Below, one piece after another: positions 1 through 11,460 of a stretch of 64,000 nucleotides of DNA. Source of the stretch: Salinisphaera orenii subsp. halophila YIM 95161 (GTDB taxonomy: Bacteria; Pseudomonadota; Gammaproteobacteria; Nevskiales; Salinisphaeraceae); contig NZ_AYKF01000001.1 in NCBI RefSeq assembly GCF_003732545.1, positions 1 to 64,000 on the forward strand, read 5' to 3'. Every line of letters begins with the position of its first letter. Positions within the stretch are counted from its first letter, which is position 1. The position numbers and the translations under genes were made by a program. Below the pieces are notes generated by a model, which saw only the letters and a program-made list of their open reading frames with translations, was not told where the DNA came from and did no database searches.

Positions 1-1116
<1,116 letters not shown>

Positions 1117-1138
1117 GGGAAGAGCCGGCGTCGAGGCG

Positions 1139-1843
1139 TCAGTCGACGCGACGAATCAGCATCAGGCCGCAACCGAATGCTTTGGCGCGACCAAAGCCGC
1201 GGGCCATCGCTTCGATAAACCGATCGGCGTCCGTAACTTCCAGTAGGCCACTATAATCGACACTAGAAAATTGAACGGTTCGATTCCCGCCGTTGCGCTT
1301 ACTCAATTCGTGCTGCCGATAGGTTTCGACGGCAGTTTCAGCTCGCAGCGCGAAGCCCGCCTTATCGCCCTGCCTCGCCAACCACCGTATGGCGGCGGCT
1401 TCCATTGCAGCCTGGCATTCAGGGCTGTTGCGGTCAGCCTGCGGAAAACCGAATTTCGCATGCATCATCACGTCGCTACGCTGCGAACGTTTGCCGGCGC
1501 CGGCCGGGCGCGCAACCGTAGGGTTGGCGCGTAACTTGAATCCGAGCCGATCCCCCGACCGGAGCTGCGGATCGAAACGCTTGGATTCGACCTCAAGCCA
1601 ATCGAATGATTGCGCTGGCTCGCGATCCGAGAGCACATAGAACAGCGGCAAACCTTTCGGCACGGCCGAGGGGCTTTGCTCGCTTTCGATTTCCTGGCGA
1701 AACAGAAACCGGCGTTGATCATCGTCCGAAAAGAGCTTCCAGAGCAATTGATGGGCCGCGTAGGCGTCGCCCACAAGGACACGCAGAAGAGTGTCGCGAT
1801 CAAGCTGGTTCATATCCAATCGAACCCGTGATAACAGCATCAT
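1139..1843 (-). CDS. cas6e: Cas6e (CasE/Cse3) crRNA-processing endoribonuclease
   Basis: This 234-aa RAMP protein cuts pre-crRNA at the base of each repeat hairpin and stays on the 3' stem as part of Cascade. The start is set by the ATGA overlap with the cas5 stop (1840-1843); a longer reading frame exists upstream but lies inside cas5. His31 in AYAAHQLLWKLF corresponds to the catalytic His of the E. coli protein, LGFKLRANPTV is a conserved Cas6e core strand, and the C-terminal glycine-rich loop GFGRAKAFGCGLMLI is complete. It would process both the array transcript and, if transcribed, the crRNA-like RNA at 6177-6266. Confidence 0.95.
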   Translation of the reverse strand: MMLLSRVRLDMNQLDRDTLLRVLVGDAYAAHQLLWKLFSDDDQRRFLFRQEIESEQSPSAVPKGLPLFYVLSDREPAQSFDWLEVESKRFDPQLRSGDRLGFKLRANPTVARPAGAGKRSQRSDVMMHAKFGFPQADRNSPECQAAMEAAAIRWLARQGDKAGFALRAETAVETYRQHELSKRNGGNRTVQFSSVDYSGLLEVTDADRFIEAMARGFGRAKAFGCGLMLIRRVD

Positions 1844-2586
1844 CTGCCTCCCGAGCCGCGGGCGTAGCGTCGAAATTCCAGACGCGGGCCGAATTGCCAA
1901 CGGCGACGATCACGCGGCATATCCCACACATCGCTGGATTCGACACCGGCGGTATCGCCATCCAGATCTGGCGCCTCGCCTTCCCAGGCATAGAGCATGT
2001 CGTGTGCTGGCACGAGCACGTCTTTTGTTTCGCCGGCGATCGGTGGAAACGCATGATCCAGCGCTTCACGCCAGTTCTCGGCCGAGATGCAACGCGGCGC
2101 CAAGGGCGCGGCCGGCGGGCAGGCCCGGCGCCCAAAGTAAAGCGCGAAGCGTGGGCGCGCCAATGCCTCGGCCAGTTCGTCTAACAGACCTTCATCAGCG
2201 CCCGGGCTCGACCGCAGCGCGATAATCCATAGCCCGTCGCTGCGATAGTCGCGTTTGGAAATGATGGTACCGAGCTCGCTGGACGGGCGATCGAGTTCGT
2301 CGCGACGCGTATGGAAGCGCTGCCCTTTACGACTCGGCGGCATCTGAACCGTGTGATAGTCGCGCAAGAGGCGACCCGGCGAATACTGCTTGACCGCAAG
2401 CCGGATGTTTTGATTCAAGGTGTCCAGCCGCCCAGTTTCGTCGCGGCGAATACCCAATGCCGCAGCCAGTAGCCCCACAACGGCGGAACGGCCCGGGTAG
2501 CTGGCCGTAGGCCGTTCTTCGCCTACTGCCGGCGTGCCCCAACTGGCGAGCGGCGCATACAGCCGAAAGACGAGATAACGCATCAC
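1840..2586 (-). CDS. cas5e: Cas5e (CasD) Cascade subunit
   Basis: This 248-aa RAMP protein begins MMRYLVFRLYAPLASWG, with VGEERPTASYPGRSAVVGLL, the typical Cas5e N-terminal ferredoxin-like fold and the S/Y-P-x-R-S segment. Cas5e binds the 5' handle of crRNA and caps the Cas7 backbone. It overlaps cas7 by 4 bp upstream and cas6e by 4 bp downstream, so the three are translationally coupled and expected in a fixed ratio. No defect is visible. Confidence 0.95.
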   Translation of the reverse strand: MMRYLVFRLYAPLASWGTPAVGEERPTASYPGRSAVVGLLAAALGIRRDETGRLDTLNQNIRLAVKQYSPGRLLRDYHTVQMPPSRKGQRFHTRRDELDRPSSELGTIISKRDYRSDGLWIIALRSSPGADEGLLDELAEALARPRFALYFGRRACPPAAPLAPRCISAENWREALDHAFPPIAGETKDVLVPAHDMLYAWEGEAPDLDGDTAGVESSDVWDMPRDRRRWQFGPRLEFRRYARGSGGR

Positions 2587-3656
2587 GCCCGGTCGCCCGT
2601 CACGAAATCACGCAGGCCGCCCAACGTGCCGTAACCGTCGAGCAGATTGAGCTGGGGCTCGCCCGCCTCGAGCGTGCAAAAGGCATAGCGCCCATCAGCG
2701 CCGGCCCCATAGACGTCGTCGAAACGTTGCGCCTGGACCTCGAGTCGCTGGATCGCCTCCATGCCGAAATCTTCGCCGCTGACCGGGCGCATGAACGCAA
2801 CGGACAGACTGCGAGGCTGTTCGTCGCCGCGCTCTGCCAACGTATAAACAGCGCGGGCCCGCGAGCCGAAGCTGTTCTGCTTGCCCTTGGGCGAGGTCTT
2901 GGTAATCGCTTCGACGAGTGCTGCCACACCGCGATCGGCCAGGTCGGCGTCGCCGGCGAGGTTTTCGATCAGCTGTTGGCGATCGATGCAGATGTACGAA
3001 TAGAACAGGCCGGCACCGAAACCGAGCTCGCCGATGTGACCGGCGCCGCGATCCTCATCACCCGGGTTGAGATCGTCGACCGCGGTGAAATAATCGTCCT
3101 CGACCTCGGCTGCGTGCACGGTAATGGCATGGGCCACTTGGCACGATGCATCCACGTTGTATTTAGGCGACGCGGCCAACATTCGGCCGAACAACGCAAT
3201 GTCCACCGCCCGCGGCCGAGCGCGTAGCAGATCAAGCTCTGTTTTTTCTGGCGCACGCTTTTCTTCGGCCAACACGTCGCTCAAGTCATAAACGGCCTGC
3301 CATTCCTCGGGCGCCACGTGTACGAGTTGACGCGTTTCCACCTGATCTTTTGGGACGTCGCCGAATACACCGGCAATCTGATTGGACCAAGTGCGTGCTT
3401 TTTTCTCGTCGATGCCGGCGTCAACCAAACGTTGCTGCACGTGGGCGCCCAATCGCTTGGTGCGTGTACCCCGGTCGTCTCCCATGGCTGTCTGAAACAC
3501 ATCGGACGTGCGCCAGGTCCGTTTCAGACTTTGGGACGACACGCGAAGACGCTTGGCGCCGCCCATGATCGCCGTCTTGGGCCGGCCGAGATCATCGCGA
3601 TTGAGGTTGGCCGGCGGATAGGCCGTCAAGACGTGCAGTTGAATGAAATCGCTCAT
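2583..3656 (-). CDS. cas7e: Cas7e (CasC/Cse4) Cascade backbone subunit
   Basis: This 357-aa protein begins MSDFIQLHVLTAYPPANLNR, then GRPKTAIMGGAKRLRVSSQS, both diagnostic of Cas7e. Six copies form the crRNA-binding filament; the thumb of each flips out every sixth guide nucleotide, a rule used here to interpret the mismatches of the putative self-targeting guide. GLFYSYICIDRQ and a C-terminal segment rich in conserved glycine positions fit the family, and the length is normal. It is separated from cse2 by 35 bp, the largest gap inside the operon, and overlaps cas5e by 4 bp. Confidence 0.96.
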   Translation of the reverse strand: MSDFIQLHVLTAYPPANLNRDDLGRPKTAIMGGAKRLRVSSQSLKRTWRTSDVFQTAMGDDRGTRTKRLGAHVQQRLVDAGIDEKKARTWSNQIAGVFGDVPKDQVETRQLVHVAPEEWQAVYDLSDVLAEEKRAPEKTELDLLRARPRAVDIALFGRMLAASPKYNVDASCQVAHAITVHAAEVEDDYFTAVDDLNPGDEDRGAGHIGELGFGAGLFYSYICIDRQQLIENLAGDADLADRGVAALVEAITKTSPKGKQNSFGSRARAVYTLAERGDEQPRSLSVAFMRPVSGEDFGMEAIQRLEVQAQRFDDVYGAGADGRYAFCTLEAGEPQLNLLDGYGTLGGLRDFVTGDRA

Positions 3657-3691
3657 TGGTTCCCCCGAAACTGAATAATGGAACGGCCCGC

Positions 3692-4369
3692 TCAGCCGTC
3701 GATGGATTTGTAGCGCGCGACCTGGCCGAAATAGGCCTCCGCCCAGCGGAAGGCCAACCGTTTGCCAGGGTCATCCGGCCACCGCTGCCCGGCCCGCTCG
3801 GCAAACCACAGCAAGACGTCGTCGGCCAAAAGCACTGGGCTCAACGACGAGCCGCGCAGCATGGCAAGCACGCGTCGCAGGCGGCGCACCAACTCCTCCG
3901 GACTGCGGCTTTCCTGCAATTGCTGGAACCGTAATGCGGACACGACCGGCTCTCCGGTGTCGCCCTGCTCCTTGCCTGCCTCGGCCGCGAACGATTGCCC
4001 GACCGCATCGCCCTTAACTTCGGCCAATAGCATGGCCACGCACGCCCACGCGGCGATATTCAGGTTATCTGCGTCGTCGCCGGCCGCTTTCTGCTGTGTG
4101 TACCAGAGCCGTCTAAAGCCTTCGGTCATGGCAGCGGCCTCGGGCGTTTCGCTGCGCCGCAGAACCGCTCGCAAACCCGGCGACCAGGGCCGGACGGCGA
4201 GACCGATTTTTTCCGCCTCTGCCGGAGTGAGCGCCAAACGCTGCCACCAGCGTCGAACCGCCCCGGCAGCCGCGGGTTGGCGACGCAATATGAGGCATCG
4301 ATTCAATTCCGCACGCTCTCGCGCATTGGTCTCGTCTCGGCTCTGCTCCGGCGTCTCGGACTCAACCAT
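3692..4369 (-). CDS. cse2: Cse2 (CasB) small Cascade subunit
   Basis: This 225-aa, mostly helical protein carries the Cse2 pattern ALRFQQLQESRSPEELVRRL followed by LRRVLAMLRGSSLSPVLLADDVLLW. Cse2 forms the dimeric inner belly of Cascade that stabilises the R-loop. Its N-terminus overlaps the cse1 3' end by 8 bp. The C-terminus WAEAYFGQVARY matches the family end. It is slightly longer than the E. coli protein owing to a charged N-terminal extension of about 20 residues. Confidence 0.93.
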   Translation of the reverse strand: MVESETPEQSRDETNARERAELNRCLILRRQPAAAGAVRRWWQRLALTPAEAEKIGLAVRPWSPGLRAVLRRSETPEAAAMTEGFRRLWYTQQKAAGDDADNLNIAAWACVAMLLAEVKGDAVGQSFAAEAGKEQGDTGEPVVSALRFQQLQESRSPEELVRRLRRVLAMLRGSSLSPVLLADDVLLWFAERAGQRWPDDPGKRLAFRWAEAYFGQVARYKSIDG

Positions 4370-6065
4370 TCGTTATCTCCTCGTCGGGCTGTCGGGTTTC
4401 ATCGCGCGCTTTCAGATCGAATCCGCCGCGTTCCGCGAATAAAGCCACGGCATTTCGCTTCTTGGATTTCTTCGCGCCGCCAGCCAACCAGATACTCAAC
4501 CAACGCCGCTCACGCACGCTGCGCTCCATCTGGCGCAGATCCGGCGCGCCGGAAAGCGCCTGCTCGTCGAACAATCGAAAGGCGGCGCGTCGCAGGGCGC
4601 GATACCACGCGCGGGCTGCTTCGGGTGGTAAGAAATTAATAGCGTCTTCGCCGTCGACCGCATCGCGCAGCGTGCGTATGAGCACGAAGAAATCGGCCTG
4701 TGTGGCCTGAAAAAACGCACCGGCGAGGTGGCTGGTATCGCCCCCGGCTTCCTTCGGGCGTTTGAACCAGGCATGCCGAATGCGATCGGAAACCTCGCGC
4801 GCCGTAGCCTGCGCCAGATCAACGCATTCGGACACCCATTCCCGAAGCACATCGCGCCGATCACCCGGTACCGCGACGAGCGGCATCTGCATATCCGTCC
4901 AGCCGCGCGCCTTCATGTTGTCGAGGTCGAAACCGTGAACCCACAAGCGCGCCTGTCGCGATAACACAGTGTCAGTCTTGCCGTCCTCGAACTCTTCCCA
5001 ATAGAACGGGTACTTCGCGCCGATATAGTCGCGAACCACGACCGCAGGCAATGCGCCAACGCGCTCGTCATCATCGAAAACGAAGGCGCTCCAGTGACGA
5101 TAATCGATGCCGCCGGGGCGGCCTTTCTGCGACCAGGGCGTCGTATCCGGCTTCTTGGGATCGTGGCGATACGGGGTTAGCGGATGCCGCCACGGGCCTT
5201 CGTAATTGATACCGTAATTCTTGGCACGCACTTCGGCGACCGTCGTTTCGCTCTCGCCGCCACAGATGTCGCAGACCGCAGCGTGCTCTTCGAACAACAA
5301 ACGGAACCGGCGCGGCATCGACCAATAGACGTGCAGCGGATGCAGCATTTCCGGGTATTGAGCAGATCCGGCCTTCTCGCTGGTCGGTGTTGCGCCCATC
5401 CACGGGAAGACGGTCGCGTCGTCGGCTTGCGGCGCGGTGAACTGCTGCCCTTTCTGGGTGATCTGCGCCTTTGGCACGACATTCAGCCACAGCTTCTGCC
5501 ATAGCGAACTATCCGGGTCGTCCGGCAGCACGAGCGTTGTCAACGGGCCGCCACCGCGCATACCGGTTCGAAACCCCGCTCCACCAGCTGGGCCGCTGGC
5601 TTGAATCGTGTACAGCGCGATCGCCGCGCAATCCGGGCAGAGCCGCTCGGCGACACCTCGCTTGATGAAGAAATCGGTATTGTTCTTTATGCCGTTCGCG
5701 CCGGGCGCGTCGACTAGCAGGCTCGATACCGACGACAACGAGGCGCTGTCGAGCGGATCTCTATCCTGCATGAAGCGCGGGCCAGTACCATCAAGGTTGA
5801 AAGCGCCTGCAAATGGGGTGAATAGCTCGGCCAGCTTCTCTGGCGACGGTGGTGACTCGTAAAGATCTAGCCATTCAGCTTCGCCCTCGGGCGATAAAGC
5901 AGTCTGCAGCAATCCGATTAAAAACTGATATGTCGCGCCGAGGAAGTCCGCGCGCGGCATAACGATGTCAGTCAAGTCGGGGCGTGATAGCTGACAAGGC
6001 TCGACTCTTAAAACGAGATCATCTCTTCGCTCCGCGAAAAGCCACTGGTCGCATATCAGATTCAT
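4362..6065 (-). CDS. cse1: Cse1 (CasA/Cas8e) large Cascade subunit
   Basis: This 567-aa protein recognises the PAM and recruits Cas3. I chose the ATG at 6065 (MNLICDQWLFAERRDD) because it matches the canonical Cse1 N-terminus; an ATG 15 bp upstream (6080) is less likely. Two CxxC pairs, CPDC and CDIC, form the structural zinc site seen in many Cse1 proteins. GPRFMQDRD and the NNTDFF block are conserved. It is the first gene of the cse1-cse2-cas7-cas5-cas6e-cas1-cas2 operon, and its 5' flank holds the proposed self-target (6121-6143). SD context is modest (GAGG four bases before the ATG). Confidence 0.95.
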   Translation of the reverse strand: MNLICDQWLFAERRDDLVLRVEPCQLSRPDLTDIVMPRADFLGATYQFLIGLLQTALSPEGEAEWLDLYESPPSPEKLAELFTPFAGAFNLDGTGPRFMQDRDPLDSASLSSVSSLLVDAPGANGIKNNTDFFIKRGVAERLCPDCAAIALYTIQASGPAGGAGFRTGMRGGGPLTTLVLPDDPDSSLWQKLWLNVVPKAQITQKGQQFTAPQADDATVFPWMGATPTSEKAGSAQYPEMLHPLHVYWSMPRRFRLLFEEHAAVCDICGGESETTVAEVRAKNYGINYEGPWRHPLTPYRHDPKKPDTTPWSQKGRPGGIDYRHWSAFVFDDDERVGALPAVVVRDYIGAKYPFYWEEFEDGKTDTVLSRQARLWVHGFDLDNMKARGWTDMQMPLVAVPGDRRDVLREWVSECVDLAQATAREVSDRIRHAWFKRPKEAGGDTSHLAGAFFQATQADFFVLIRTLRDAVDGEDAINFLPPEAARAWYRALRRAAFRLFDEQALSGAPDLRQMERSVRERRWLSIWLAGGAKKSKKRNAVALFAERGGFDLKARDETRQPDEEITNG

Positions 6066-6115
6066 AAGCCTCGCCCCCATACCTTCAACGTACCAAGCAC
6101 GAAGATCATCTCACA

Positions 6116-6121
6116 ATAATA
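6116..6121 (-). promoter_or_regulatory. Putative -10 element of the cse1 operon promoter
   Basis: The minus strand reads TATTAT here, five of six matches to the sigma-70 -10 box, about 51 bp upstream of the cse1 start codon. No convincing -35 hexamer is found 16-18 bp upstream, so the promoter is either weak or activator-dependent. It directly abuts the PAM of the proposed guide target. Confidence 0.35.
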
Positions 6122-6155
6122 AGACGAATGGTATATCTGCGGCTTGATTCTCAGC
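6121..6155 (+). promoter_or_regulatory. Putative self-target (PAM plus protospacer) of the crRNA-like guide, in the cse1 promoter region
   Basis: Bases 6121-6123 are AAG, the preferred type I-E PAM. Bases 6124-6143 match the first 20 nt of the pseudo-spacer at 6206-6225 at 18 positions; mismatches fall at guide positions 9 and 12. Position 12 belongs to the every-sixth set that Cascade does not read, and the seed (1-5, 7, 8) is perfect. Guide positions 21-32 match at only one of twelve. Short PAM-proximal complementarity of this kind is known to permit Cascade binding without licensing efficient Cas3 degradation. The site lies directly upstream of the likely -10 of cse1. Confidence 0.72.
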
Positions 6156-6176
6156 TGTAGGTCACGCACTATACGA

Positions 6177-6266
6177 ACGTTCCCGTAATTAAGCGGGATG
6201 AACCGACGAATGGCATGTCTGCGGCAGCCATAGTCAACCGTTCCCCGCACCAGCGGGGTCTTAAAT
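6177..6266 (+). ncRNA. crRNA-like guide RNA gene (two diverged repeats flanking a 32-nt pseudo-spacer)
   Basis: The first pseudo-repeat (6177-6205) matches the array repeat at 20 of 29 positions. It keeps GTTCCC, a rebuilt TCCCG/CGGGA stem and an exact 5'-handle ATGAACCG (6198-6205). The pseudo-spacer is 6206-6237, exactly 32 nt. The second pseudo-repeat (6238-6266) matches at 19 of 29. It keeps the Cas6e-type hairpin CCCCGC-ACCA-GCGGGG but has lost the handle, which a last repeat does not need. The two repeats are 61 bp apart, the same unit as in the array. Cas6e cutting would give a 61-nt RNA (6198-6258). The strand is opposite to the cas genes. A weak promoter may lie at 6148-6175 (TTCTCA, 16 bp, TATACG). 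I infer a CreR-like autorepressor or CreA-like RNA; transcription is unproven. Confidence 0.72.
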
Positions 6267-6503: not shown

Positions 6504-9185
6504 CTAGGGAATAATCGAAAGTCGAAGTCCGTATACGGCATCGTAAGCATTCGAGGGATCATCGGCGACGACCCAGGGCCGAGCGAACGCCAACGATCGA
6601 TATCGTTGGACAAGTCGCTCCCAGGCCGGCTCTTGCACCGACGATAACTCGGCCAGCTTAGCGACTTGGCTCTCGCGCAAGCGGATCTGGCTCAGCGTCG
6701 CCGCGTGTGCGACCGCACCCGCCCACGGCACTAGCTCACCCGATTCCTCGCGAAGCAGCACGACCTGTCGGCTTGGCTCATCGGAGAGCCGCGTTCCGAT
6801 TTCGCGCTCGGGTTGCCACCGATCCGGATTGCCGCCGTAGCCGGCGGGCAGATCGAGTGCATTGAAGCGGGCCATACTGCGATCCGCCATCGCCTTGCCT
6901 TCGCGTTCGTCACTGGCCTCGCGCAACCCCTCTGGCAGCCATGTTTCGGCCGGCTCACCGTAGACGTCCTCGATTAGTTTTCGCGCATCGCGCGGCAGAT
7001 GCAGGCCATGACACTCGCGCAGTACGCGTTGCGTGAGCCAGCACAGCCCCGGGTCTCGATAGACGGCATGCGTGCCCGGCAAGCCGCGACGCAGCCATTC
7101 CGCATCCGGATCGTCGGCCCAGCTCGGTGCCAGCACGTGCATCGTGGGCGCGGCGCGTTCGCCGCGACCGTGCCGTTGCAGGCGTCCGGCGCGCTGAATC
7201 AGTGCATCGATCGGGGCCAGGTCACTGATCAGGCGATCGACGTCACAATCGAGGGATTCCTGGAACACCTGCGTGGCGACCAGCACCCGTCCAGATCGCT
7301 CGTCCGGCGTTGACGATTTGCCGAGGCAATCCAGCACCTGCTGCTCGATGCGCTGACGATCGATCATGGCGTAGCGCGCATGGAACAGCGTGCAGCGCTC
7401 GGAGTCTGAGTGAGCGCCGCGAACCAGCTCATAGGCCCGAATGGCGTCGTCCACCGTATTGCGCACCCATGCGATCGACTCGCCCCGCTCGACCGCGGCC
7501 ATCACGACATCGAGCGCTGCCTGCTCATCGGCAAGCCAAGCTACGGCGACGTGTCGATGTGCGGCATCGGGCGTCGTCAGCGGTTGTTCCGCGATTGCAC
7601 CATCCGATCCGACGGCGGTGAATAAGGGAAAATCATCCGCGCGCGGTGCCGACAGCGATGCCTGGCAGCCGCGCTGCCACGCCGCAACCAGCGCGGCTCG
7701 CATGGACTGCGGCAGCGTAGCTGTCAGTAGGATAGCGCTGCCACCCTCGCCGGCGTGATATTCGAGCAACGTTTCCAACAGCCGTTGCATGTAGACGTCG
7801 TAGGCATGCACTTCGTCGATGACCAGCACCTTGCCGGCCAAGCCGAACAGTCGCAGCGACTGATGTCGGAACGCGAGCAGGCCCATTAGCACTTGATCGA
7901 TGGTGCCGACACCGACGTCCGCGAGAAGCGCTTTCTTTCGTGAATCCGCCAGCCAGCGATTACAGGCGGCGGCGTTGCTGGGCTCGCCGCTGGCGTGATC
8001 TCCCGTGCCTGCCAGCACCTTGTCGACGGCGTGTTGGAAAACCTCGTTGAGCTCTCGCGCGCCATGCGCAAGCACGCATGACGGTGCCGATTCGGCGGTA
8101 AAAAACCGTCGGTGCAAGGCACCAAGCCTCGCGTACATGGCATTCGACGTGGCCATCGTCGGAAGGGCGAAAAACAGCCCCCGCGCGTCACCGGCATCGA
8201 GCAAGCGCTGGGCGAGAATACAGGCCGCTTCGGTCTTGCCGGAGCCAGTCAGATCCTCGAGAACGAAAAGCTGCGAGCCACCACCGACCGGATACTGCTC
8301 CGCCTGTTTTTGCAACGGTGTCGGCACGATGTTCGAGCCGTCGAACCAGGCGTTCAATCCGGTAAACGGCACCGGCTCCGGCGCGCAATCCAGTCCACTG
8401 GCGCGCACCGCGTTGGCCGCCTGCGGCAATGCGAAATCGCGCCAGTAATCCGATAGCGCGATCTCGTTGGCCTGAAAATCGAAGAAGTCCTCGTTGGAAC
8501 CGAGCCAATCGCTCGCGACTGCCCAGCCGGCAATCCGCCAGCTCTGTCGATTCCACTGCTCGCACCAGTTGGGGTCCAACAGTTGCTCGACCGGCCATTC
8601 CGGCGCCATGAGCTCGGCCCAGTGTTCGACAAAACTTGTGGCGGCGTTCGTGTCGTCAGCCGATTCATCGTTGGCAAAGAAACGCTCGACGCGATGGTTC
8701 GCAGCGTCCACAGGCTGGCCGTGATGGCCAAAAATCGGCGCAACCAGATGTGACAAGCCGGCACTCATCTGCGCGCGACTTTGTCGATCGACGCGAACAT
8801 CCGGCCACCTCAGTACGCCCTCCCGACGCCAGCGCCGCTGGTTCGCTTGCCAGAGAACCGCCCCAAGGCAGTCATGCCGCACCGTGTTTTCGTAACGCTC
8901 GAGCGGTGGCACCAATGACACGCCCGAAACGACCGCCAGCCCTTGGAAGGAACGTGCGAATTTCCCGATATCGTGCAAACCCAGCAGAAACACCAGCAAT
9001 CGGCGCAGACGACCCGGCTCTATCCGGAGCCGATGCGCCAATTCGCGCAAAAGAGGCGCTTGTGGTGCCAGCAATTGCCACCCGACGGCCGCCACATCCA
9101 GATTGTGATAAGGCAACAGATGACACGGCGCTCCAGGACCATCGTTACGTCGCGTCTTACCCCAGTAGAGAAAATAATTGCCCAT
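6504..9185 (-). CDS. cas3: Cas3 helicase-nuclease, type I-E
   Basis: This 893-aa protein is recruited by Cascade to unwind and degrade target DNA. The N-terminal HD nuclease has GLHDIGKF (His71-Asp72) and a later GHHG motif. The SF2 helicase core shows Walker A LTGSGKTEAA, the DEVH box in VIDEVHAYD, motif III LLTATLP and motif VI QRAGRLQRHGR. All catalytic motifs are intact, so the system should interfere actively. It is transcribed in the same direction as the Cascade operon but separated from it by 438 bp that contain the crRNA-like element. That separation would allow Cascade and Cas3 to be regulated independently. Confidence 0.97.
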   Translation of the reverse strand: MGNYFLYWGKTRRNDGPGAPCHLLPYHNLDVAAVGWQLLAPQAPLLRELAHRLRIEPGRLRRLLVFLLGLHDIGKFARSFQGLAVVSGVSLVPPLERYENTVRHDCLGAVLWQANQRRWRREGVLRWPDVRVDRQSRAQMSAGLSHLVAPIFGHHGQPVDAANHRVERFFANDESADDTNAATSFVEHWAELMAPEWPVEQLLDPNWCEQWNRQSWRIAGWAVASDWLGSNEDFFDFQANEIALSDYWRDFALPQAANAVRASGLDCAPEPVPFTGLNAWFDGSNIVPTPLQKQAEQYPVGGGSQLFVLEDLTGSGKTEAACILAQRLLDAGDARGLFFALPTMATSNAMYARLGALHRRFFTAESAPSCVLAHGARELNEVFQHAVDKVLAGTGDHASGEPSNAAACNRWLADSRKKALLADVGVGTIDQVLMGLLAFRHQSLRLFGLAGKVLVIDEVHAYDVYMQRLLETLLEYHAGEGGSAILLTATLPQSMRAALVAAWQRGCQASLSAPRADDFPLFTAVGSDGAIAEQPLTTPDAAHRHVAVAWLADEQAALDVVMAAVERGESIAWVRNTVDDAIRAYELVRGAHSDSERCTLFHARYAMIDRQRIEQQVLDCLGKSSTPDERSGRVLVATQVFQESLDCDVDRLISDLAPIDALIQRAGRLQRHGRGERAAPTMHVLAPSWADDPDAEWLRRGLPGTHAVYRDPGLCWLTQRVLRECHGLHLPRDARKLIEDVYGEPAETWLPEGLREASDEREGKAMADRSMARFNALDLPAGYGGNPDRWQPEREIGTRLSDEPSRQVVLLREESGELVPWAGAVAHAATLSQIRLRESQVAKLAELSSVQEPAWERLVQRYRSLAFARPWVVADDPSNAYDAVYGLRLSIIP

Positions 9186-9346: not shown

Positions 9347-9625
9347 TTAGCGCGGCCGATAAACATGCTTCCGATGCGCAATACGAACAACCAGAACGCG
9401 AAGGACGTCATCCTGAATATCACATACAAGTCGATAGTCGCCGACGCGAAATCGCCAGTATTCCCGCAATTCGCCTTGAAGACTTTTTGCTAAGTGGCGG
9501 GGCTCATCCGCTACAGCCACACGCTCGCGCAAGTAATTAGAGATCCGCCGCGCTGTTGGCGGATCGAGCTTCTCCAGAGTCTTGCGCGCGGTCTCGGTCA
9601 GCTCAATCCGCCAGGCCAAGATCAC
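9347..9625 (-). CDS. RelE/ParE-superfamily toxin
   Basis: This 92-aa basic protein has the RelE fold pattern: an N-terminal helix LTETARKTLEKLDPPTARRI, then beta strands LREYWRFRVGDYRLVCDI and LRVLVVRIAHRKHVYR with the Arg/Lys/His residues typical of RelE-type mRNA interferases. The only ATG overlaps the antitoxin 3' end by 23 bp, the usual coupling of such pairs. It would cleave ribosome-bound mRNA when the antitoxin is lost. The pair sits between cas3 and the CRISPR array, inside the CRISPR-Cas locus. Confidence 0.88.
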   Translation of the reverse strand: MILAWRIELTETARKTLEKLDPPTARRISNYLRERVAVADEPRHLAKSLQGELREYWRFRVGDYRLVCDIQDDVLRVLVVRIAHRKHVYRPR

Positions 9626-9910: not shown

Positions 9911-11345
9911 CGGTTTATCCCCGCGCATGCGGGGAACGGACGACCTGGCCGACACCAAGCATGCAAAGTGGCGGTTCATCCCCGCGCATGCGGGGAACGG
10001 CCAATGGTCTAGTCGTGGGCCGCTTTGCGTGGCGGTTCATCCCCGCGCATGCGGGGAACGGCTCCACCAGTTAGGCCCCTGTTTTTACAGGGGCGGTTCA
10101 TCCCCGCGCATGCGGGGAACGGGTGCAGGCGGCCCGGGCCGTCGCCGCGCAGCTTGGTTCATCCCCGCGCATGCGGGGAACGGGCCGGACGCCTGCTGCA
10201 ACCCGCGCACGGCGCCGGTTCATCCCCGCGCATGCGGGGAACGGGCGCTGTAGCGCAAATCGACAAGACCGGGATCGCGGTTCATCCCCGCGCATGCGGG
10301 GAACGGGCATCGCTGGGGTGGGGATGACTAGGCAGCATGCGGTTCATCCCCGCGCATGCGGGGAACGGAGGGGCACACAGTTTGCGGATGCGGCGAGAGC
10401 CGGTTCATCCCCGCGCATGCGGGGAACGGTCGATGTGCCGCAGCTCGCGGGCTACTACGAGCGGTTCATCCCCGCGCATGCGGGGAACGGCGATACACGC
10501 CGCTGCCCAGATCGGTGCCGCCCGGTTCATCCCCGCGCATGCGGGGAACGGGCGACAGATTGCATCGAATTGCCTCGCGCATTCCGGTTCATCCCCGCGC
10601 ATGCGGGGAACGGTCAAGGTATTGCGTCCGCATCGCATGCGGGATCGGTTCATCCCCGCGCATGCGGGGAACGGAGCCCGATATCGTGTCCCGAGTTTCA
10701 CTAATACGGTTCATCCCCGCGCATGCGGGGAACGGACCAGTTTGGCGGCATTCTGCTGGATCAGCTCCGGTTCATCCCCGCGCATGCGGGGAACGGCGAT
10801 TTCTCGGCGATATCGCGAGTAAATGTGCCGGTTCATCCCCGCGCATGCGGGGAACGGCTGCTGGTCGCCTAGTTCGGTAGTGAAGTGAACGGTTCATCCC
10901 CGCGCATGCGGGGAACGGATCCAGGCTTTACTCTGGGCCTGTGCGTCTTTCGGTTCATCCCCGCGCATGCGGGGAACGGCGTCGCATTCTTCGTAGGGCA
11001 ATATTTCGATCTGGTTCATCCCCGCGCATGCGGGGAACGGACCGTCTATCAGCGCCCTTCGAAGCACTATTACGGTTCATCCCCGCGCATGCGGGGAACG
11101 GCGTGTAAATCCGCAGCGCGACGGCCATTACATCGGTTCATCCCCGCGCATGCGGGGAACGGCCACTCTGTGCCGTACCTGAGGCCGCAAGCCACGGTTC
11201 ATCCCCGCGCATGCGGGGAACGGGCGCTCGATAGTTGGCCGCCGGTAAACGTGTTCGGTTCATCCCCGCGCATGCGGGGAACGGCGTGGCCGCTGCGATT
11301 CGGGCCGACGGACGCACGGTTCATCCCCGCGCATGCGGGGAACGG
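9911..11345 (-). CRISPR. Type I-E CRISPR array, 24 repeats and 23 spacers
   Basis: On the plus strand the 29-bp repeat starts CGGTTCATCCCCGCG and ends CATGCGGGGAACGG. The transcribed sense is the minus strand, giving a CCCCGC/GCGGGG hairpin and 5' handle ATGAACCG. Repeats recur every 61 bp, except that three spacers (starting near 10245, 10307 and 10552) are 33 nt instead of 32. Two repeats begin with T instead of C (10155, 11012). The repeat at 9911-9939 has one internal change (handle ATAAACCG), marking it as the leader-distal end. The leader is therefore at 11346 and beyond, and the array is transcribed towards cas3. All spacers look different by eye. Confidence 0.98.
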
Positions 11346-11460
11346 TCTAAATGTAAACGGCTGTTTATATTATTGAAAACAGACCCTGAATTTTCCACCA
11401 GACAAACTGATCAGTTATTGATCATTTCCGATTGTTAAACATCAGGCCTACGCAAGGCCG
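11346..11460 (-). promoter_or_regulatory. CRISPR leader (AT-rich)
   Basis: The sequence flanking the last intact repeat turns sharply AT-rich, as expected of a leader that promotes array transcription and guides Cas1-Cas2. On the minus strand CAATAATATAAACAG just before the first repeat offers a -10-like element. Two TGATCA palindromes (11408-11413 and 11419-11424) are spaced 11 bp apart, one helical turn; the first is embedded in the 12-bp palindrome AACTGATCAGTT. I could not assign a confident IHF site. Confidence 0.75.

What the first reader, a model, noticed from the sequence alone, without database searches (positions are those of the whole stretch)
6121..6266. A crRNA-like guide between cas3 and cse1 that matches the cse1 promoter: probable Cascade self-repressor
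Seen: two diverged array-type repeats on the plus strand (6177-6205 and 6238-6266) start exactly 61 bp apart and enclose 32 nt. The first keeps an exact ATGAACCG handle; the second keeps only the Cas6e hairpin, as needed to end a crRNA. The guide start ACGAATGGCATGTCTGCGGC (6206-6225) matches ACGAATGGTATATCTGCGGC (6124-6143) at 18 of 20, with AAG at 6121-6123. The seed is perfect, one mismatch falls on a flipped-out sixth position, and the distal 12 nt do not match. Known: CreA/CreR-type RNAs use short PAM-proximal matches to repress toxin or cas promoters without cutting. Inference: this type I-E system uses a built-in guide to throttle cse1-cas2, so Cascade level would be self-limiting and released when real crRNAs or an anti-CRISPR occupy Cascade.
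Basis: partly seen in the sequence, partly recalled or inferred. Interest (0 to 1): 0.96.

Follow-up and report, generated by a model that had tools for sequence, protein, structure and literature searches.

The report
CRISPR guide RNA repressing cas genes
A two-repeat mini-CRISPR between cas3 and cse1 encodes a crRNA-like guide that most probably leads the cell's own Cascade complex to the cse1 promoter, so the immune system limits its own level; this is a new, well-supported example of a known kind of regulator (CreR).

Summary
In the cas3-cse1 gap of a type I-E locus (a Salinisphaera relative), two degenerate repeats (6177-6205, 6238-6266) flank a 32-nt guide. Its first 20 nt match an AAG-flanked site at 6124-6143 in 18 of 20 positions; no shuffle of the gap reached this (0 of 20,000), and the pair is unique in the genome. 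In the swap test 25 of 29 guides score at least 8/10, against 6 of 802 swapped pairs. Pooled mismatches peak at guide positions 6, 12 and 18, which Cascade does not read. Best explanation: a CreR-type RNA by which Cascade represses the cse1 operon. CreR is already reported for type I-E, so this is a new member of a known kind. In many relatives a short ORF, often hydrophobic and sometimes overlapping the cse1 start, lies between target and cse1, more like a CRISPR-repressed toxin; the window has none. Transcription, Cascade binding and repression are inferred, not shown.

The parts
6177..6205 (+). psiR1, degenerate repeat with intact 8-nt handle ATGAACCG (6198-6205)
   Evidence: 20/29 match to the array repeat; folds into a hairpin at -9.3 kcal/mol
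6206..6237 (+). 32-nt guide (pseudo-spacer); positions 1-20 match the target at 18/20
6238..6266 (+). psiR2, degenerate repeat keeping the Cas6e-type hairpin CCCCGC-ACCA-GCGGGG, handle lost
   Evidence: 19/29 match to the repeat; hairpin -12.3 kcal/mol
6198..6258 (+). predicted mature 61-nt crRNA-like RNA (8-nt 5' handle, 32-nt guide, 3' hairpin)
   Evidence: inferred from Cas6e cleavage at the base of each hairpin; fold
6121..6155 (+). target: AAG PAM (6121-6123) and 32-bp protospacer (6124-6155); non-target strand is +
6065..6123 (-). probable cse1 promoter and short leader next to the target; weak candidates TATTAT (6121-6116) as -10, or TTGTGA-N18-TACGTT (6116-6087)
   Evidence: consensus counting only; the standard scan found no strong promoter; start site not established
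6144..6175 (+). candidate guide promoter (TTCTCA-N16-TATACG, or TTGATT-N17-CACTAT), overlapping the distal part of the target
   Evidence: consensus counting; inference
4362..6065 (-). cse1 (casA), first gene of the unit predicted to be repressed
   Evidence: PF09481, E 1.4e-100
196..4369 (-). cse2, cas7, cas5, cas6e and cas1, downstream of cse1 in the same direction
   Evidence: Pfam hits
6504..9185 (-). cas3, upstream of and outside the predicted repressed unit
   Evidence: Cas3 HD and helicase hits
9911..11347 (-). canonical type I-E array of 24 repeats; crRNAs read from the minus strand

Best explanation
This is a CreR-type cas-regulating RNA gene. A short plus-strand transcript is cut by Cas6e at the two hairpins into a 61-nt crRNA-like RNA that loads into Cascade. 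The loaded Cascade binds AAG plus protospacer at 6121-6155, at or beside the cse1 promoter, through about 20 nt of PAM-proximal pairing. The unmatched distal 12 nt should keep the R-loop from locking, so Cas3 is not called in and the site is blocked rather than cut. Cascade thus represses cse1 and the genes after it. When array crRNAs or an anti-CRISPR take Cascade away, repression should ease. Shown here: anatomy, guide-target match, uniqueness, and co-variation across relatives. Inferred: transcription, processing, binding, repression and release.
For: 18/20 match with AAG, never reached in 20,000 shuffles; unique in the genome. psiR1 keeps the handle and psiR2 the hairpin, exactly what is needed to make one crRNA, the same degeneration reported for creA genes (PMC8501985). 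Relatives have the same locus and orientation with different guides: own-site scores are at least 8/10 informative seed positions in 25 of 29 distinct guides, against 6 of 802 swapped guide-gap pairs. Match fraction by guide position is 0.93-0.97 at 1-5, 0.20 at 6, 0.70-0.97 at 7-11, 0.30 at 12 and 0.27 at 18. In several relatives the PAM complement CTT forms the start of a -35 box, e.g. CTTGACG-N17-TAGCTT in L007 and CTTGTCA-N17-TATTGT in L071. The element is concentrated where cas3 and cse1 are well separated. Cascade, Cas6e and Cas3 genes are intact. CreR autorepression has been reported for types I-B, I-E and V-A (PMC13131331).
Against: No strong sigma-70 promoter is found for cse1 or the guide. 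Guide position 9 is mismatched. No RNA or binding data are available. The one other cse1-bearing genome of the same genus (L032) has a small ORF between target and cse1, so part of the family may control something besides cas genes.
Confidence: 0.86

Rival explanations
1. CreA of a CRISPR-repressed toxin module (CreTA or CrePA type): the guide mainly silences a toxin between the target and cse1.
For: Many relatives with the same guide locus have a short ORF between target and cse1, often hydrophobic.
Against: In the window only 56 nt separate the PAM from the cse1 ATG. The only ORF there is 15 codons (MIFVLGTLKVWGRGL) and would begin upstream of one candidate promoter's start site; there is no room for a toxin like those of the relatives.
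Confidence: 0.07
2. A self-targeting or decaying leftover of an ordinary array whose match to the promoter no longer does anything.
For: Both repeats are degenerate, and the distal 12 nt of the guide do not match.
Against: Relatives have different guides that each match their own site, with the 6-nt periodic mismatch pattern; only the repeat parts needed for processing are kept. Neutral decay predicts neither.
Confidence: 0.04
3. The guide mainly represses its own promoter or blocks read-through from cas3, rather than a dedicated cse1 promoter.
For: The best guide promoter candidates overlap the distal target, and the cse1 promoter candidates are weak.
Against: In relatives with recognisable promoters, the PAM sits at the -35 of the promoter directed towards cse1.
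Confidence: 0.1

Closest known systems
CreR, cas-regulating RNAs from mini-CRISPRs (Liu et al. 2023, Cell Host Microbe; read here only through reviews PMC12737573, PMC13131331 and PMC12948488)
   Same: Mini-CRISPR outside the array, a crRNA-like guide, partial match to a cas promoter, no separate toxin gene; type I-E is named among the reported types.
   Different: The window's pairing is long (18/20) with a guide of full 32-nt length, while many relatives here have 20-nt guides and shorter matches. Not tested experimentally here. Whether this lineage was in the published set could not be checked, because the primary paper is not held.
CreTA, CRISPR-regulated toxin-antitoxin (PMC8501985, PMC9458426)
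   Same: Same guide architecture: two diverged repeats giving an 8-nt 5' handle and a 3' handle, a PAM, free positions at 6 and 12.
   Different: No toxin between target and cse1 in the window.
CrePA (review PMC12737573)
   Same: Guide-directed Cascade repression of a neighbouring promoter, released by anti-CRISPRs.
   Different: CreP is described as typically a KilA-N domain protein; nothing like it is here, and the relatives' ORFs are short peptides.

Membership tests
CreR | Mini-CRISPR outside the array: two degenerate repeats around one guide, Cas6 elements kept | tested here: met
   psiR1 handle and hairpin, psiR2 hairpin
CreR | Guide partly complementary, with PAM, to DNA directly upstream of the cas operon | tested here: met
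   18/20 with AAG, 56 nt from the cse1 ATG
CreR | The site is a functional cas promoter | tested here: inconclusive
   Only weak promoter candidates
CreR | Guide-target match kept by selection across relatives | tested here: met
   Swap test and positional profile
CreR | No toxin gene controlled by the guide | tested here: met
   Only a 15-codon ORF in the 56-nt leader
CreR | RNA is made, bound by Cascade, represses cas; released by crRNAs or Acr proteins | not testable with these tools
   Needs RNA and binding experiments
CreTA | Toxin gene or toxic RNA between the guide's target and the next gene | tested here: not met
   No room in the window
Type I-E CRISPR-Cas host system | cas3, cse1, cse2, cas7, cas5, cas6e, cas1 and a 61-bp periodic array | tested here: met
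   Pfam, array; cas2 not checked, at the window edge

The most novel reading that the evidence does not exclude
Gammaproteobacterial type I-E loci share a widespread guide module in the cas3-cse1 gap that in many lineages controls short peptides (36-52 aa, many hydrophobic) made from the cas leader, so that loss of Cascade would switch on both a peptide toxin and new Cascade. The window would be a toxin-less derivative that kept only cas self-regulation. Such membrane-peptide, cas-coupled modules would be a new variant of CRISPR-repressed toxin systems.
Probability: 0.3. Interest if true: 0.75.

Novelty: new member of a known kind. Interest (0 to 1): 0.52.

Why it matters
It shows from sequence alone that RNA-guided self-repression of Cascade is common and fast-evolving in gammaproteobacterial type I-E systems, with about 35 different guides whose upstream sites have changed together with them. 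The pooled pairing profile is a natural experiment on how much pairing Cascade needs to repress without cutting. It also gives a simple test for how such systems sense anti-CRISPRs. The switching between loci with and without a small ORF makes the relation between CRISPR toxin guards and cas autoregulation directly testable.

Tried and rejected
Rfam gave no hit for the region. The sigma-70 scan found nothing at its threshold. A duplication or dispersed-repeat origin was rejected: only two copies in the genome, with the match starting exactly at guide position 1. A toxin ORF in the window was looked for and not found. Pfam and NCBIfam gave no significant family for nine of the relatives' small ORFs. 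A Cse1 tree shows the guide and its sub-types scattered over the tree, no more clustered than shuffled labels. Long branches, and labels that may miss degenerate copies, make gain/loss counts unreliable: a relaxed rescan found two more guides (L069, L078), and L101, the same locus as L012, was labelled 'none'.

Full report
Observation. Two degenerate copies of the array repeat lie in the cas3-cse1 gap, 61 bp apart, on the strand opposite to the cas genes. The array at 9911-11347 gives the true repeat as CCGTTCCCCGCATGCGCGGGGATGAACCG. The first copy (6177-6205) matches it at 20/29 and keeps the 8-nt handle ATGAACCG and a hairpin. The second (6238-6266) matches at 19/29 and keeps a perfect 6-bp hairpin but not the handle. 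They enclose 32 nt, ACGAATGGCATGTCTGCGGCAGCCATAGTCAA. Its first 20 nt match 6124-6143 at 18 positions, with AAG at 6121-6123; positions 21-32 match at 1 of 12. Mismatches fall at guide positions 9 and 12. Of 20,000 dinucleotide-preserving shuffles of the gap, scanned on both strands with no PAM required, none reached 18. The 20-mer pair occurs nowhere else in the 3.79-Mb genome with up to three mismatches.

Setting. cas3, cse1, cse2, cas7, cas5, cas6e and cas1 give clear Pfam hits. All read on the minus strand; cas3 is upstream of the gap and cse1 (ATG at 6065) downstream. A second array with a slightly different repeat lies on contig C130. The genome is a Salinisphaera relative: the cse1 contig of G002, of the same genus, has the same length (12,735 bp) as that of Salinisphaera sp. 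GH4 (inference).

Comparative test. cse1 loci were gathered by a pattern scan of one genome per species and by protein search of about 870 whole genomes. I scanned 107 cas3-cse1 gap sequences; a few are the same genome held in two collections. In all, 35 distinct guides were found: 29 entered the swap test, four more are (L004, L105, L132, L143), and a relaxed rescan added L069 and L078. In every accepted case the guide reads antisense to cse1. Guides differ widely and are mostly of two lengths, about 20 or 32 nt, which differ by two 6-nt Cascade segments.

Guide and target change together. For 29 distinct guides, the best AAG-flanked site between guide and cse1 was scored at positions 1-5 and 7-11. 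Twenty-five reach at least 8 of 10, whereas 6 of 802 swapped guide-gap pairs do. Of the four low scorers, L002 and L111 have a good match behind AAA instead of AAG, L152 has one on the opposite strand, and L130 has none. Over 30 guide-target pairs the match fraction is 0.93-0.97 at positions 1-5, 0.20 at 6, 0.70-0.97 at 7-11, 0.30 at 12, 0.83 at 13, 0.53-0.63 at 14-17, 0.27 at 18, and near chance beyond 20. Positions 6, 12 and 18 are those that Cascade flips out (established knowledge; 6 and 12 were shown to be free in a CreA by mutation, PMC8501985). This is strong evidence that the sites are held by Cascade pairing. Caveats: the targets used for the profile were chosen as best matches at positions 1-5 and 7-11, which inflates those positions, but it does not explain the dips at 12 and 18 or the high value at 13. 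Some guides are related to each other (for example L013 and L018), so they are not all independent.

Where the target lies. In relatives with recognisable promoters, the complement of the PAM, CTT, forms the start of the -35 of a promoter reading towards cse1: CTTGACG-N17-TAGCTT in L007, CTTGTCA-N17-TATTGT in L071, CTTGTGA-N17-TACGAT in L034. In the window the candidates are weaker: TATTAT at 6121-6116 as a -10, or TTGTGA-N18-TACGTT at 6116-6087. Either would be covered or flanked by Cascade on 6121-6155. Promoter candidates for the guide on the plus strand (6144-6175) overlap the distal target, so the guide may also limit its own synthesis (inference).

Mechanism. The most likely reading is a CreR: Cas6e cuts out a 61-nt RNA (6198-6258), Cascade carries it to 6121-6155, and the bound complex blocks expression of the cse1 operon while cas3 stays outside the repressed unit. 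The unmatched distal 12 nt should prevent full R-loop locking and Cas3 recruitment (established for E. coli Cascade; from memory). CreR autorepression in type I-B, I-E and V-A systems, its competition with array crRNAs and its release by anti-CRISPRs are reported in reviews (PMC13131331; PMC12737573). The primary paper (Liu et al. 2023) is not in the library, so I could not check whether this lineage was in its data. Hence: new member of a known kind.

What is different in relatives. In the window, L007, L111, L123 and L135 the target is 15-60 nt from cse1 with no room for a gene; in L071 it is 107 nt away. In most others it is 150-340 nt away, usually with a short ORF between. One group (L012, L013, L018, L023, L029, L032, L034, L040, L100, L105, L140) encodes a related peptide of about 43 aa (MR.W...FW...WDW..I), whose stop often overlaps the cse1 start; in L012 and L040 the frame is shortened. 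L122, L126, L127, L132 and L153 encode strongly hydrophobic 36-52-aa peptides. A third group (L009, L027, L035, L097, L114, L143) has a conserved leader (GGCGACGAATCACCGAAC...) and a 37-40-aa ORF. The nine representatives tested match no Pfam or NCBIfam family significantly. They could be toxin genes under CreA-like control, but toxicity is not shown.

Distribution. The guide is concentrated where cas3 and cse1 are separated: most gaps of about 120 nt or more carry one, and nearly all shorter gaps do not. On a Cse1 tree it is scattered, no more clustered than shuffled labels. This fits repeated gain and loss, but long branches and missed degenerate copies prevent counting events.

Verdict. Observation confirmed, interpretation supported. 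Confidence 0.86 that this is a CreR-type guide acting on the cse1 operon.

Noticed in passing
L018 4876-5013; also L013, L023, L029, L032, L040, L100, L105, L140: A conserved peptide of about 43 aa (MR.W...FW...WDW..I) lies between the guide's target and cse1, often overlapping the cse1 start; tested members match no Pfam or NCBIfam family significantly. Candidate CRISPR-repressed toxin or Cascade accessory protein.
   Followed up: partly
L122, L126, L127, L132, L153, upstream of cse1: Strongly hydrophobic peptides of 36-52 aa in the same position, reminiscent of type I toxins.
   Followed up: partly
L009, L027, L035, L097, L114, L143, upstream of cse1: A conserved leader (GCGGCGACGAATCACCGAAC...GTCGCC), probably a structured RNA, followed by a 37-40-aa ORF, downstream of the guide's target. 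Could be an RNA toxin or a regulatory leader.
   Followed up: no
L012: One guide has two AAG-flanked target sites 27 bp apart in the same promoter region.
   Followed up: no
window 9347-9625 (-): A ParE/RelE-type toxin gene (PF05016, E 1e-14) sits between the array and cas3; its antitoxin was not checked.
   Followed up: no
G000 contig C130, 9270-10517: A second type I-E array with a slightly different repeat (CGCGTCCGCGGGG instead of CGCGCATGCGGGG), while only one cse1 was found in the genome.
   Followed up: no
L130 and L152: Mini-CRISPRs in the same gap whose guides lack an AAG-flanked match on the usual strand (L152 matches the opposite strand); possibly different targets or decaying copies.
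   Followed up: no
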